Part shown: positions 33,901-40,449 of the stretch, piece by piece
How the letters are laid out: every line of letters begins with the position of its first letter
Numbering within the stretch: position 1 is the first letter of the stretch
DNA from: Phlebopus portentosus
Lineage: Eukaryota; Basidiomycota; Agaricomycetes; Boletales; Boletinellaceae
Length of the DNA stretch: 64,000 bases
Assembly (NCBI GenBank): GCA_037892935.1
Contig: JAYXKI010000001.1
Span: 3,534,001-3,598,000, forward strand
Direction: 5' to 3'
Notes under the pieces: model-generated
Told to the model about the DNA's origin: nothing
What the model saw: only the letters and a program-made list of their open reading frames with translations
Databases searched by the model: none
Position numbers and translations under genes: made by a program

Positions 33901-34469
33901 GGCGGAGAGCTTGCTTGCGCATCAGTAAATTTGATATCTTCATTCGTGTTTCTTTCAAGAGATCAGTCTGTTCGGCATGGTGCTGCCGCGCCTCGGTGCG
34001 GGAAGGAGGCATCCGCAGCAGCATGCGTTATTTTGATCAAGTCCGATGTGACGTGCTCTTGAGATTCGGCACGTCCGTGGGTAAGCTCGGGATCGGAAAC
34101 AAAATCAGAAGACTCAGAACATTTGGAATCATAGGCCAGAAGTAATTGTAAGTGTGGAGAGGCCAGACGTCTCCCCGCGTTTTGTGGTGCTTTCATAATT
34201 ATGAAGAACGGAACTCCCAAGGATAATAATGGAGCGCAAACTTGATGGTCGAGAATGGACCGCCAGCGGAACGAACCGAATGTAAATGGACGAAGGCGGC
34301 GCTTCACGACGAGACGGTAGTGAAGACGAGCGATGCGGAGGCGACCAGAACGAAAAATTAAGGATTAGAAACGACGGAAGCTCTCGATGCGCGTGGGCAG
34401 ATGGGTAGTCCGGTGATGGGTCTGTTCCTGTCGGTCGTCGTTGACACCGTAACTGATCTCCATCCATAC
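30941..34469. other. Gene-poor 3.5-kb stretch left of the transposon
   Basis: No convincing gene. The longest open frame (33407-34024, minus) and others at 31337-31588 and 32413-32670 have no domain, odd composition and no splice partners. The only ordered structure I see is the 9-bp tandem repeat at 32059-32094. The region ends at the transposon's target duplication and may contain decayed mobile DNA. Confidence 0.5.
32059..32094. repeat. Four copies of a 9-bp tandem repeat
   Basis: The unit GGCTGCACA is repeated four times in a row with no mismatch (32059-32067, 32068-32076, 32077-32085, 32086-32094). It is flanked by a related CTGTGCAGG. A small minisatellite in noncoding DNA. Confidence 0.92.
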
Positions 34470-34488
34470 TGGTGACTGGCAATTCCCA
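34470..34488 (+). repeat. Left terminal inverted repeat (19 bp)
   Basis: TGGTGACTGGCAATTCCCA, identical over 19 bases to the reverse complement of 38768-38786. The outside neighbour is TCCATAC (34463-34469), repeated at the other end. Confidence 0.93.
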
Positions 34489-36178
34489 ACTCCAAACCGT
34501 GCGTTCCCACGATTCCTGCCGCGTCGTGCCAGTGATCGACGCATGCATGAATGTTGTTGCACTTTTGAAGATGGCCTTCGCCTCAACTAAAAATCGCAAA
34601 TATTGATGAATTGAGGGAGGAGATAGATTTCGAAAGTAGGGGGTTGGGACAGTGCAGATTCAGAAAATTAACGAACACGTGATGTGATAGAAATATGTTG
34701 AACTCCGGCGACACCTCTGCTTCTCGATCAAAGAAGCAAGAAAAGGCAAAATTCAATCAGTAAGCATATGTAAAGGATAGTTTGATGCATACAGAGTACT
34801 TACAGTGCGATTTGAGAAGAGAAATGCCAAAAACGAAGCAATCACGCTCTGGAGCCCAAGTTTTGGTGCTCCAGAAAGCTCGAGACGATCTCGCAACTGT
34901 CAGTTCATCGAGAAAAGAGAATATTCCTGTCAAAAACACAAGGTCGACGAGTTTGAAGATCGAACAACTTACGGTGGACTTGCAAAGGGCAGAAGGGCGG
35001 CTTAACGAAACACAAAAGCTTGCTATTCAGCAAGCTGTCGACTTCGACCGTTTAAACAAGGAGTTTCAGAAGCTCGAGACTGCCAATGAATCGATGAGAC
35101 ATCACCTTGTGCAAATACAGGTGGCACTTACCAAAAGCGAGGACCAGCTGTCCAAGGCGTGGGCAAATACATCTGCCTCTCAAAACCAGGTCAGGTACCT
35201 GCGAGTTGCTCGCAAGCGTCTTTCCGAGACCAAAACTTTGCTGGGCAATAAAAACAAACAATTAAGAGGTCAGTTACTGGCAAAGGAGACAAAACTCACC
35301 AAACACGAAATGACGGCTGCTGCATTACATTTGCACATCGAAACCTTGAGCAATGCACCAAAAATCGCACCACCGTCACTGTCCTCAACGAATGTCAGTA
35401 CTTTGGTCACGAATTCATGCCAGAGAGAACTCGAGAGAAGGATCAGAATGCTGGAGAAGAAGATTCGTCAGATCGGAAGAAATTACGACAGAAAAATCGA
35501 GAACTTACGCAATCGAATTCAGACAACCCGAAGCAAATACAATGCTCTCCGAATGCAACTTTGCCGATCTCGAAAACATGTCAGCAAGCTCGATTTGTTC
35601 AAGAAGAAAGCAATGATAATGGTTCGACATACCTATAAAGGACTGTACTCGACTCGTCTTCGCTCGCTCATTCGCCGAATGTGTAGTCTTGGATGTCCTC
35701 TGACAAAATGCGGAATGGTTTTTTCTGAGTTCATGAAGTTCCTCTGTAATTTTATTGGACTCACCTCTGGAATGAAAATTCGAGTGCCGAGCATACGAAC
35801 AATCAGAAGATTTGTCAAGGAAGGAGAGGTCGCGTCCAGGATCCAACTTGGTGAAGAAATGAGACGAACCGTTGGTACGTTCGTAATGTTGAAGAGCTTC
35901 CTGATCAATCGAGTTTAATTTTTGTCCAGGATTTACCACTGGCGGCGATGGAACTACAAACAAAAGTCAGAACTTCGATTCTTTTCATCTGAACTTCTCG
36001 ATCCCAAAAAATGCCTCCTCGGAGGCATCTTCGTCGTCTGAAACCGTTCGACATGTTCGCTTTGGGAACCTACGAATGGAGGCAAATCATAGAGCCGAAA
36101 CGCAGATGAATGGAGACGTCCAGTTCATACAAAATTTCATTGATCTGTACAAAAAGAGTCCATTGGGACAAAGAAATG

Positions 36179-36231
36179 GTCAGACTATACTCAGCTAGGA
36201 TCTATTGTATAGGTGCTAACTCGAGTCTCAG
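36179..36231 (+). repeat. Introner-like intron copy 1 (53 nt)
   Basis: Begins GTCAGACTATACTCAGC, contains GTGCTAACTCGAG (branch site) and ends CTCAG. Removing it joins ...GQRN to DVSTLD in frame (phase 1). The body, including AGGATCTATTGTATAGGT, is shared with copies 2 and 3. Confidence 0.9.
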
Positions 36232-36891
36232 ATGTTTCGACGTTGGATACATCGAATGCTCCGCTGAGCATCGAGACGGCCGCTTTGAAGTACCACGGAT
36301 CGCATGGTGACCACGCAGAGGACCAGAAGGCTAAGCATCGTCTTCTTGCCGCCTGGAAAGAGACTGTATCATTGCGTGGACTTGGAGCGAAGCATTTTTT
36401 TTCCTTACCTGAAGATCGACGCGAAGCTTTCATTTGTAGAGGAAGAGAAAAAATGATTGAAGAACTTGGAAGCGAATCAGCATGGCGGGCATTAACACCA
36501 GAAGAACAGGCTGAAAAAAACTTAGCTTTGACAGGGGATCTGGCCGATGAATTAGCTGGGGAGGCTCTTTTGTCACTTTCTGAAGAGGAGCGAAGACGAA
36601 TCAATATATTCGTCTGGGCAGGGTGCGGAATGCACAAAGATTTAAATGCTGTGAAAGGTGGAGATTCAGCGATGCAGGAAGAATGGAAAAAATTCGATAT
36701 CTCACCTATCCTGCTTGCCAATCGAGACAATTCAGCGGTTTTGGAACTCGCAGAGTGCGATGGAGAAGACCCGGGGGACGAACGAGACGAGACAGCTGCC
36801 GAGAAGCGTGCTCGTGAAGTTTCGAAAGCGGGTGGTGTCAAGTTATCATATCTGATAGGATTGCTGGTCAATGATAAAGACGATAAGAAAG

Positions 36892-36946
36892 GTGAGACTA
36901 TACTCAGCTAGGATCTATTGTATAGGTACTTACTCGAGCCTTGCAG
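36892..36946 (+). repeat. Introner-like intron copy 2 (55 nt)
   Basis: Begins GTGAGACTATACTCAGC, contains AGGATCTATTGTATAGGT and ACTTACTCGAG, and ends CTTGCAG. Removing it joins ...DDKKG to WHHIFRDW in frame (phase 1). The branch site has one change from CTAAC. Confidence 0.9.
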
Positions 36947-37299
36947 GTTGGCATCACATCTTTCGGGATTGGGCCTCGAAGCATATCGGCCTGACGTTCA
37001 CATTTCCCGACACGTCGAATACACGGTATTCGTCGTATCTCGATGCGGCCGCAGAAATTCTCGCGCATTTGGATGCGTATGTCCAATTTATGGACCGAGT
37101 TCGCTATTCGAAGGTTAAACCTTCGCTCAATAACCTTGAAGAAAATATTAGCAACGCATTGAACGACCCACCGACACTCACCGAACTTGCATGCCTTGCA
37201 CTGTACCGAGAGGCCGTTTCGATTCCCTACATATCTTCGATCCGGGGGGACTCTCTTGAGGAAGTGAATGCTCTCGAGCTTGGATCTAGACTGCGGGAT

Positions 37300-37360
37300 G
37301 TGAGACTATACTCAGCTAGGATCTATTCACAGGTACTAACTCGAGTCTTACATGATAAAG
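37300..37360 (+). repeat. Introner-like intron copy 3 (61 nt)
   Basis: Begins GTGAGACTATACTCAGC, contains AGGATCTATTCACAGG and TACTAACTCGAGTCTTAC, then a unique tail ATGATAAAG. Removing it joins ...SRLRD to VQSHIKRL in frame (phase 0). The CAG end of the other copies is changed to TAC, so a downstream AAG serves as acceptor. Confidence 0.88.
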
Positions 37361-38304
37361 GTCCAGTCGCACATAAAAAGGCTGATCGAAGCGCCGCAGA
37401 CAATCTTGTCTGCCCATTCCAGGCCTCAGGAGGCAATCCTCGACGGAAATAAATCCTGGAATCGCCACGATACCATCGAAGCAATACAAGAACTTATTAC
37501 CAAAGGAAGGCTACCAAAGCTGGAACAGCTTTTCGTAGCCTTTTGAAGGGCGCCCTATCAACTTGGGAACGATTTTCATCAGAATTTAATGAAGATGGAA
37601 TCATTGCAGCACTCACCGAAGAAGAGAAAGAACTGGCTTGGATGCCAGCAACAAACGACGCAAATGAAGGAGCACTTGGCTCCTTCAGAGTATTCCATCG
37701 AGGAAGGCCGAATGGGTCTGTGGAGCTTTTTAACGCATTATTCAGATACCGAAGAAATAGAACAGAAGAATTCATCGAACAGAAACTTACCAGCGAATGG
37801 GACCAGAAGTTTCTCAGGAGGCAGGCACAAATCGAAGACGCTGAGGGAACGGACAGAAAGCGGCGTCGTGAAATTGAGGACGAGAGGGAGGCAGACTACA
37901 CTGCAAAACGTCAGAAGTGCGAAATAAAAAAAAAAGAAGAGAAGAAACCGACGCACGAATTGACGCTGTCGAACTGCAGCTGGACCGCGACGCCATTGAG
38001 GAAATGACCGTCGCACAAATGAAAGATCAGTTAGCCAAATTACGCAAAATGCGAAGCGACGTACCGATACCAAAGGCAAAGGATATGCCGAAGAAGGAGG
38101 ATATCAAGAGGGCCTTGCTGAACCTCCTGACAATTATGAGGCCGAATCCCTCATCATGATCCATCATCTCGCGCAGCCGCTTGCTTACATCTTCCCAATC
38201 CGTGCTTGTACTTCTTCAACTTTTTGGACTTGGGTTTGTCCGGTTCATCAGTAGTTGTTTTCATTATTTCACGTCACCGAATTCGAAGGATTTCTGGAGA
38301 ACTT

Positions 38305-38767: not shown

Positions 38768-38786
38768 TGGGAATTGCCAGTCACCA
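38768..38786 (-). repeat. Right terminal inverted repeat (19 bp)
   Basis: TGGGAATTGCCAGTCACCA, the exact inverse of the left end. The outside neighbour is TCCATAC (38787-38793), identical to the 7 bp outside the left end, giving a target-site duplication. Confidence 0.93.
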
Positions 38787-39886
38787 TCCATACGGACAAA
38801 GCAAATCTAGAAAGCTTCGGAATGGGTCGACGCACGTCGCTCAACTTTCTTTGCTGTTCCCGGAGGAATGCGGGAAGGGCCGATGTGGCGACCTATGAGA
38901 GCGAAGATTACTCAAGAGAGAAGACAATCAGGGCAAGCATCAGAGCTGCGCCGGAAAGAACGTACGTGAAGATTGAGAGAAGGCGAGTAAAAGGGGAGGA
39001 GGAACTTTAAATTGATTGAATATTACGGCCGATGCGATGGGCGATGTTGATGAGATGAATTTGGCGCCATACAAGTTAAAAATGGAATCGGAACTGAAGC
39101 GATATCCGCGGGCCTCACCGCTCCGTCACATGTTCAGAGCATTTTGGATTTCATTCTGTCTGACTACTAGACCTGGCGTGTGCGAGGCAGCAACGACTGA
39201 TGAGGACTCGGAGGTCAATCGAGATCAAGTTGAAGTTGACGAAAGAAGCGAGTAATATTTTGGATGCACGTGCAAGAAGGGGCTCAAACGCGACCCTGTC
39301 ATCACTTACACAGCCAATTTAAGGAGGGGTGCCGATCACCGGGAGGGCAAATAGCGATCTTTGTCATTTACTTAACACGCACGCATTAATGAATGTATAT
39401 CTCGATCTCGGCGATAGAAAATGACGGAAAACCGGAAGTGGAAATAACTAGCTGGATTGGGGAAGAGAAGCCGGAACCAGGACACGTCTTTGAGAAGGTC
39501 CAGGTCCCAATGTTGAATGTACGAGTGAAGCACGCGGACTCTCCGGCACGGGTAGAACTGCCTATTCTTCTCGCAGGTGCCACGGGTAACCGCCTACTTA
39601 CTCCCACAGCATATATATCCCGTCCTTCCTCGAGCCCTTTATAATCCACTCCTCCCACACCCCGACAACTCTCTCCCAGCAGCACGCTCCTTTCTCTTAT
39701 CAGGTCCACTCTTCTAGATCCTCTCAGTATTTCCCTCTCTCCATAGCCTTCTAGTGCCCTGTTGCACTCCATCACAATATATATCATCATCAACTCGACC
39801 TGATCCTCGATTGTAAACGCAAATCCAGGAGATTTTAAGAAGAGCGTCTCGTCGCCCCCACCCAGCAGCATCCTCTCAATTTTATA
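38787..39886. other. Intergenic region with promoter of the repeat-peptide gene
   Basis: About 1.1 kb between the transposon and the secreted peptide gene. Short open frames at 39016-39255 and 39393-39644 show no domain. From about 39640 to 39770 the plus strand is strongly pyrimidine-rich, as in leaders of highly expressed fungal genes. Confidence 0.5.
39611..39618 (+). promoter_or_regulatory. Candidate TATA box
   Basis: ATATATAT, 276 bp upstream of the peptide-precursor start and about 30 bp before the CT-rich tract that is the likely 5' leader. Spacing fits a TATA-driven, inducible, highly expressed gene. The role is inferred from position only. Confidence 0.45.
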
Positions 39887-40449
39887 ATGCTGTCATCAAG
39901 ACTATTCTTCCTTTTCTCTTGCGTCTTCGTCTTCCTCGCTCTCGCCTGTGCTGCTCCTGTATGTTCATATACTTTATCCGGCGTTTATCCTCATGCTCAC
40001 TTGTCTCGCTCTCTGCGCGTTCAGGTAGCGCAGCCTGACGATCTGGTCAAACGTATCGCCGAACCCGTGAGCACCTTTTCCAATTCGTATCTACCCTTTT
40101 TCGACATGCATCCTAATACACAAACGTATTCGATTCTTATAGCAAAATGGAATGGGTGGCAGCGGAAAAGATTGGAAACGTGAGGCACAAAACGGCATGG
40201 GCGGGTCTGGAAAAGATTGGAAGCGGGAGCCAGAAGCTGAAGCTGATCCCCAAGGCGGGTTTGGCGGTTTTAATAAAGACTGGAAACGGGAGGCTGAACC
40301 TCAACCTGTGAGTATCCACGTAGCCTATTATTCATCAGCGTTCCGTCGCTGAGACGACGCTTTTCTCCCAGCAAGGCTTTGGCGGCGTAAGCAAGGACTG
40401 GAAGCGAGAACCGCAAGGTGGTTTTGGCGGCTTCGGTAAGGACTGGTGA
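39887..40449 (+). CDS. Secreted Kex2-processed repeat peptide precursor (alpha-factor-like)
   Basis: A 118-residue precursor in four exons (39887-39958, 40025-40066, 40143-40307, 40372-40449), all joined in phase 0. Exon 1 is a signal peptide: MLSSRLFFLFSCVFVFLALA then CAAP. After a short pro-part (LVKR) come five related peptides, each followed by KR or by the stop: QNGMGGSGKDW twice, QGGFGGFNKDW, QGFGGVSKDW and QGGFGGFGKDW. Between KR and each peptide lie dipeptide spacers EA, EP-EA-EA-DP, EA-EP-QP and EP. These are the known substrates of Ste13-type dipeptidyl aminopeptidases. This is the architecture of ascomycete alpha-factor pheromones and of fungal Kex2-processed repeat proteins. An N-terminal Gln could cyclise. 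The role is unknown. Confidence 0.9.

What the first reader, a model, noticed from the sequence alone, without database searches (positions are those of the whole stretch)
36179..37360. Three near-identical introns in one transposase gene (introner-like elements)
Introns 2-4 (36179-36231, 36892-36946, 37300-37360) share GACTATACTCAGCTAGGATC and an (A/G)CT(A/T)ACTCGAG branch region almost base for base, while the surrounding exons are unrelated. Each must be removed to keep the coding frame (phases 1, 1 and 0). Normal introns in one gene do not resemble one another. Known introners are introns that multiply in genomes; three copies inside a mobile element's own gene would be an unusual place and could carry introners to new sites.
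Basis: partly seen in the sequence, partly recalled or inferred. Interest (0 to 1): 0.92.

Follow-up and report, generated by a model that had tools for sequence, protein, structure and literature searches.

The report
Transposon introns made from U3 snoRNA
In a mushroom genome, introns in two different kinds of jumping-gene enzyme are built from the front piece of U3, an RNA that cells need to make ribosomes, and that piece stayed nearly unchanged while silent sites in the genes around it changed almost completely, which suggests that the jumping genes make use of it.

Summary
The three look-alike introns are real (exact 20-mer at 36183, 36896, 37304; 0 in 100 shuffles). In the 38.4-Mb genome the 24-mer core was found 54 times: 42 in genes of the window's hAT-like transposon group (T1), 10 in a second, CACTA-like group (T2), 2 in a 327-bp repeat that Rfam matches to U3 snoRNA. 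The introns carry the first ~50-67 nt of that U3 (5' domain) between GT and AG. None of the 54 lies in a host gene. In 23 distinct introns U3 positions 8-24 are identical in 23 of 23, one position in 22, while four-fold sites between the same T1 elements are 15-60% identical. Three of 127 homologous proteins (metagenomic, 49-60% identical) still show the intron's start; two T1 relatives read in this genome have no introns there. One T2 family carries the piece antisense. These are old, U3-derived introns kept by constraint, not a recent introner burst. The constrained part is what U3 uses to bind 18S rRNA, so I infer a role in transposon RNA (splicing or nucleolar contact). Splicing rests on frames and annotated models, not RNA-seq; the U3 call is below Rfam's cut-off.

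The parts
34462..34469 (.). left target-site duplication ATCCATAC
   Evidence: read; identical to 38786-38793
34470..34488 (+). left terminal inverted repeat of the window transposon
   Evidence: exact 19-nt inverted repeat with 38768-38786
34695..38159 (+). transposase gene of the hAT-like group T1 (frame broken downstream of 37361 in this copy)
   Evidence: S. sanghuang proteins P0001 and P0005, frames; fold of homologue P0027 matches Hermes
35875..35929 (+). intron 1, not U3-derived; holds a 23-nt word shared with lineage b and with one further place in the genome
36179..36231 (+). U3-derived intron at junction J2 (phase 1)
36892..36946 (+). U3-derived intron at junction J3 (phase 1), older than J2 by its distribution
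37300..37360 (+). U3-derived intron at junction J4 (phase 0)
38768..38785 (-). right terminal inverted repeat
   Evidence: arm 38768-38786; its last base is counted here to the duplication
38786..38793 (.). right target-site duplication ATCCATAC
   Evidence: read

Best explanation
Shown: these introns are pieces of a U3 snoRNA gene, namely its 5' domain (about nt 1-67, the part with boxes A' and A and the 5' stem-loop), sitting inside transposase genes of two DNA transposon groups and bounded by GT...AG. Inferred: copies of the U3 5' end, cut short as U3 copies in animals are, were captured as introns in a few transposon ancestors. They came with new introns at J2, J3 and J4 of T1 and overwrote older introns at positions x and y of T2. 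The piece was easy to turn into an intron because this U3 holds a branch-site-like CTAAC in the 3' arm of its stem-loop. Inferred: the boxes have since been kept by selection because the piece does something in the transposon RNA. The likeliest function is what this part of U3 normally does: fold into the A'/A stem-loop and pair with pre-18S rRNA or bind U3 5'-domain proteins. That would tie splicing or nuclear handling of the transposase pre-mRNA to the nucleolus.
For: U3 identity: the 327-bp repeat matches Rfam Plant_U3 over its whole model (L046 4071-4307, E 4.9e-7; 3 lower matches of the same clan); in the genome search only its two copies matched (E 9.2e-6, 29 of 779 candidates scored); TATA-like TATATAAGG in front. 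The introns match it from its 5' end to at most about nt 67. Distribution: 52 of 54 places are in T1 or T2, 2 are the U3 genes. Constraint: 20-nt cores are 18-20 of 20 identical at the same junction in all T1 pairs where both have the core, while four-fold sites are 15-60% identical (15 pairs). T2 pairs with U3 at x: x introns 61-85% identical, ordinary y introns of the same genes 56-67% (6 pairs). Sampling by protein, not motif: of 14 T1 exon-4 loci of this clade, J3 has the U3 core in 13 of 13 that reach it and J4 in 11 of 14. Three of 127 homologous proteins, all metagenomic, end in KKG(E/Q)TILS, the reading of the intron start. Carriers and the rest are split with support 94. The kept stretch is box A'/A, the 18S-binding part in yeast (PMC4340053, PMC9196750, passages).
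Against: No transcript data. The U3 score (32.6 bits) is below the curated cut-off (80); Fungi_U3 gave no match (24 of 392 candidates scored); with Plant_U3 one of 14 control genomes, a bacterium, also rang below the cut-off, so that E-value is not beyond doubt. In family A (2 copies) the piece is antisense to the gene, where it cannot pair with 18S. The window introns fold no better than shuffles. All 23 introns have C where both U3 genes have T (U3 position 7), so they were not copied from today's U3 genes. No clear target-site duplication was seen at the pieces by eye. Intron 1, not U3-like, also keeps similarity above shuffles in 4 of 10 pairs, so some intron conservation in these genes is not special to U3. 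Lineage D has an intron without the core at J4. The 23 introns were found by their core, which favours its conservation; the protein-based counts above are the check.
Confidence: 0.6

Rival explanations
1. Introner-like burst: a mobile intron family spread recently by copying itself, so the copies look alike because they are young.
For: 54 near-identical places; five positions in two transposon groups; one insertion in each orientation at position y, as DNA-level insertion would give.
Against: None of the 54 in host genes. J3 carriers are split from the rest as one group with nearly saturated silent sites. T2 positions x and y are old intron sites with unrelated introns in other members. No place has exactly 3 mismatches. 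The source is a snoRNA gene.
Confidence: 0.12
2. Shield by self-likeness: carrying a piece of an essential host RNA keeps the host's RNA silencing off the transposon, because small RNAs made from it would also hit U3.
For: Would not depend on orientation, so it fits the antisense copy in family A; 22 of 23 introns share U3 positions 8-25 or nearly so.
Against: The stretch identical to the present U3 genes is in several introns only 18-19 nt and ends at U3 position 7, where 0 of 23 introns match U3. No small-RNA data.
Confidence: 0.15
3. Homogenisation: the introns are kept alike by gene conversion or repeated re-capture, not by selection.
For: Similar introns at several positions of one gene.
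Against: Conservation is patchy: U3 positions 8-24 fixed, 28-37 and the tail variable with gaps, whereas conversion would even out all positions. Exons beside the introns are not homogenised. Re-capture from today's U3 genes would carry their T at position 7; 0 of 23 do.
Confidence: 0.1
4. The 327-bp repeat is not U3 but another repeat, so the introns are a repeat family of unknown origin.
For: Rfam score under the curated cut-off, a bacterial control rang with the same model, and no Fungi_U3 match.
Against: Alignment over the full model with the box motifs in order (box names recalled), other families of the U3 clan matched too; the only U3 candidate among those scored in the genome; TATA-like motif in front. 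Odds raised from 0.05 to 0.08 after re-reading.
Confidence: 0.08

Closest known systems
Introners / introner-like elements (PMC9860276: section 7 and passages read; PMC4457414: abstract and outline read)
   Same: a family of near-identical spliceosomal introns at several unrelated positions; at T2 positions x and y they lie where relatives have ordinary introns, as in parallel ILE gains
   Different: found only in transposase genes, derived from a snoRNA, no TSD or TIR seen, core kept over nearly saturated divergence instead of degenerating
U3 copies and U3/LINE-1 chimeras in mammals (PMC13174262: passages read; the 1983 work on human U3 pseudogenes is recalled, not seen)
   Same: U3 pieces copied into new genomic places, recurrently truncated
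   Different: here inside genes as introns, in DNA transposons of a fungus, and conserved
Intron-hosted snoRNAs (PMC8476143: passages read)
   Same: snoRNA sequence inside a spliceosomal intron
   Different: not a whole snoRNA but only the rRNA-binding 5' domain of U3, which makes up nearly the whole intron including its branch-site region
U3 MINI, yeast U3 nt 4-50, an in vitro RNA (PMC4340053: passages read)
   Same: the same part of U3: the A'/A stem-loop that Imp3 unfolds so that it can pair with 18S nt 6-22
   Different: a laboratory RNA; here a comparable piece lies in transposon introns

Membership tests
Introner / introner-like element | many copies acting as introns at unrelated positions | tested here: met
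   J2, J3, J4 in T1; x and y in T2
Introner / introner-like element | copies spread through many host genes | tested here: not met
   0 of 54 places found outside T1, T2 and the two U3 genes; copies with more than 3 mismatches would be missed
Introner / introner-like element | TSDs or TIRs of a mobile element (present in part of known families) | tested here: inconclusive
   none evident by eye at the junctions; no systematic test
Introner / introner-like element | spliced out of mRNA | not testable with these tools
   frames and annotated proteins agree; no RNA-seq
U3 snoRNA (source gene) | matches a U3 covariance model over full length | tested here: met
   Plant_U3 positions 1-221 of 221, E 4.9e-7, genome search E 9.2e-6; below the gathering score of 80
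U3 snoRNA (source gene) | matches the fungal U3 model | tested here: inconclusive
   Fungi_U3: no match at E 0.001, 24 of 392 candidates scored, and no control genome rang
U3 snoRNA (the introns themselves) | the 3' part with the box C/D motifs | tested here: not met
   similarity of the introns ends at about U3 nt 67
hAT superfamily (T1 transposase) | 8-bp target-site duplication (recalled as typical) | tested here: met
   ATCCATAC on both sides of the window element
hAT superfamily (T1 transposase) | Hermes-like RNase H fold with a large helical insertion | tested here: met
hAT superfamily (T1 transposase) | sequence match to a hAT family in Pfam | tested here: inconclusive
   none found, so T1 is called hAT-like only
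CACTA/EnSpm-like (T2) | Tnp2 / DUF4218 match | tested here: inconclusive
   one weak DUF4218 match, E 0.0068, below cut-off; terminal repeats not identified; the name rests on motifs recalled

The most novel reading that the evidence does not exclude
The intron is a natural U3 mini-RNA used as a splicing switch. Its A'/A stem-loop holds the branch site in its 3' arm; pairing of the A'/A strand with pre-18S rRNA, or opening by the U3 chaperone Imp3, would free the branch site. Two different transposon groups would thus make transposase in step with ribosome production, having independently captured the same piece of the ribosome-assembly machinery.
Probability: 0.2. Interest if true: 0.96.

Novelty: categorically new. 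Interest (0 to 1): 0.88.

Why it matters
It gives a traceable origin, a snoRNA, for a set of spliceosomal introns, which is rare in the intron-gain debate. It also shows selfish elements taking up more than once, and keeping under constraint, the part of U3 that binds 18S rRNA, which points to a testable link between transposon expression and ribosome assembly in a culturable mushroom. I saw no report of it in these searches, of which I saw listings only, with passages of a few papers as named: introner with transpos/fung, with basidiomycet (16), with snoRNA (52); U3 snoRNA with pseudogene/intron/retropos (33), with spliceosomal intron/fung/transpos (39), with transposon/intron/nucleol (53, 20 of 24 listed); U3 pseudogenes with reverse transcri (54, no paper); intron gain with small nucleolar RNA/transposable element/fung (64); Sanghuangporus with genome/transpos/intron (36). 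The library lacks most subscription journals.

Tried and rejected
tRNA or SINE origin: the core looked like a tRNA A box by eye, but ARAGORN found no tRNA in 4 loci and Rfam pointed to U3. Other ncRNA pieces in transposon loci: Rfam at E 0.05 on 7 loci gave 2 overlapping hits in L039, in a stretch that codes for residue runs, taken as chance; the 86-nt start of U3 alone gave no Rfam hit; the window at gathering level gave none. The motif in viral and prokaryotic contigs: none. Stability of the three window introns as RNA: z -0.65, 0.69, -1.42; the U3 start itself z -2.58 and -2.85. The third sequence was taken from the wrong strand of L040 and is not used. Upkeep of the hairpin as the sole constraint: most lower-stem pairs hold in 22-23 of 23 introns, but pair 18-40 fails in 10 and 26-32 in 7, so it neither proves nor excludes it. 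In one search exon 1 was read in a wrong frame; only junctions J2-J4 of that call are used. D4 as a decayed U3 intron: suggestive only; shuffles scoring as well: 4, 31, 63, 12 and 323 of 2000 against D3, b4, h4, f4 and W4. Ordinary T2 introns against U3 introns: Ey 18 and Bx 36 of 500 shuffles as good, the other four 158-296, so a decayed U3 origin of Ey or Bx is not excluded. Dropped rows: of 52 intron copies 23 distinct ones (one per lineage and position) entered the alignment; D4 and six ordinary introns lack the core and were left out. The 25 sequences of the tree were picked by me; absence of introns is shown for L065 and L066, likely for metagenomic reading frames, and not shown for annotated proteins.

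Full report

The introns. The introns at 36179-36231, 36892-36946 and 37300-37360 (junctions J2, J3, J4) share an exact 20-mer. Annotated S. sanghuang proteins are joined at exactly these places. The genome search found 54 places with up to 3 mismatches to the 24-mer core, none with exactly 3, and 0 for the reversed control. I assigned 51 by their flanks and the three at C1:2807k by the exon-4 match beside them: 42 in T1 genes, 10 in a second, CACTA-like group T2, and 2 in a 327-bp repeat. Nine of the 42 lie in a T1 3' fragment whose copies are 97.8-100% identical, beside a reading frame that I take, from memory of such proteins, for a Ty3/gypsy polyprotein. None of the 54 lies in a host gene. 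A second search with the 3' part of the element gave 13 hits, all at places already found.

The source. The 327-bp repeat has two identical copies (C5:2436387-2436715 and C5:2551667-2551993), a TATATAAGG about 35 nt upstream of the shared block, and matches the Plant_U3 covariance model end to end (E 4.9e-7, with three lower matches of the same clan; genome search E 9.2e-6 and only these two loci). Against this, the score is under Rfam's cut-off, a bacterial control genome also rang below the cut-off, and the fungal model found nothing. I hold the U3 call as very likely because the alignment is full-length with the boxes in order (names recalled) and no other candidate matched. The introns match this gene from its 5' end to at most about nt 67 of some 237. 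That is the 5' domain, which in yeast pairs with 18S rRNA at the central pseudoknot and folds into a stem-loop that Imp3 opens (PMC4340053 and PMC9196750, passages).

How old and how constrained. Some T1 relatives lack these introns: two copies in this genome, 43% identical, read straight through J2, J3 and J4 in frames of 814 and 744 residues. They belong to 12 of the 26 T1 exon-4 matches, 51-60% identical, that have no core beside them. Of the other 14, J3 has the core in 13 of 13 that reach it and J4 in 11 of 14; the three exceptions are lineage D. D also has no intron at J2. Three of 127 homologous proteins, metagenomic and 49-60% identical, end in KKGETILS or KKGQTILS, which is how the intron's first codons read. 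In a tree of 25 sequences the 8 carriers are split from the 17 others with support 94, so J3 was most simply gained once. Yet between lineages four-fold sites are 15-60% identical while the 20-nt core is 18-20 of 20 at the same junction (15 pairs). Intron 1 of the same gene, a control, is near shuffled background in 6 of 10 pairs but above it in 4, so not all intron conservation here is special to U3. Inside the U3 introns conservation is uneven: U3 positions 8-24 are identical in 23 of 23 with one position at 22, while positions 28-37 and the tail vary. The introns were found by this core, which favours it; the protein-based counts are the check. Youth or even homogenisation would not give this pattern; selection on the box A'/A stretch would.

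Second transposon group. T2 has old introns at two positions. At x, four lineages (7 loci) carry the U3 piece and L039 and L040 have ordinary introns. At y, L040 carries it forward and L039/L050 carry it antisense to the gene, while four other lineages have ordinary introns. So the piece overwrote old introns here, whereas in T1 it came with new ones. Among T2 pairs the x introns are 61-85% identical and the ordinary y introns of the same genes 56-67% (6 pairs). The antisense copy shows that the piece can go in at the DNA level and is the main difficulty for any explanation by RNA pairing.

How it may work. Shown: U3 5'-domain sequence, GT...AG bounds, transposon-only distribution among the places found, conservation beyond silent sites. 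Inferred: origin by insertion of truncated U3 copies, as U3 pieces in mammalian LINE-1 chimeras are recurrently truncated (PMC13174262, passages). Inferred: retention because the RNA piece acts through boxes A' and A. The branch-site-like CTNAC lies in the 3' arm of the U3 stem-loop, which suggests a switch. But the window introns are not more stable than shuffles, the 18S strings were recalled and not found in the assembly, and 0 of 23 introns match the present U3 genes at position 7. That same mismatch speaks against a shield by likeness to U3. Against recent spread stand the lack of host copies and the nearly saturated exons.

Verdict. The family fails the host-gene test of introners, and the introns lack the box C/D part of a snoRNA, so I file it under neither.

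Noticed in passing
window 35878-35900; G000 C2:1302482-1302504: Intron 1 of the transposase holds a 23-nt word kept exactly in lineage b, although four-fold sites there are 45% identical, and found exactly once more at a place where the neighbouring exons do not match. It may point to a second ncRNA source; the DNA there could not be read.
   Followed up: partly
L051, L053-L056, L059, L061-L063: A T1 3' fragment with its J4 U3 intron occurs in 9 near-identical copies; in L051 it lies beside an 888-residue frame that looks like a Ty3/gypsy polyprotein, as if a retrotransposon now copies the U3 intron.
   Followed up: partly
L060 (C17:278000-281000): A T2 relic with in-frame stops still has an intact U3 core in its intron.
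   Followed up: no
L003 and L053, intron at J4: In lineages a and G the J4 intron is 63 nt with no stop in frame (for a, by reading for G), so retention would add 21 residues.
   Followed up: no
window 40143-40446: Repeated 45-nt units lie downstream of the transposon.
   Followed up: no
PMC2780460 (passages): Neurospora U3 genes are reported to contain a small intron each; the U3 match here is contiguous without one.
   Followed up: no
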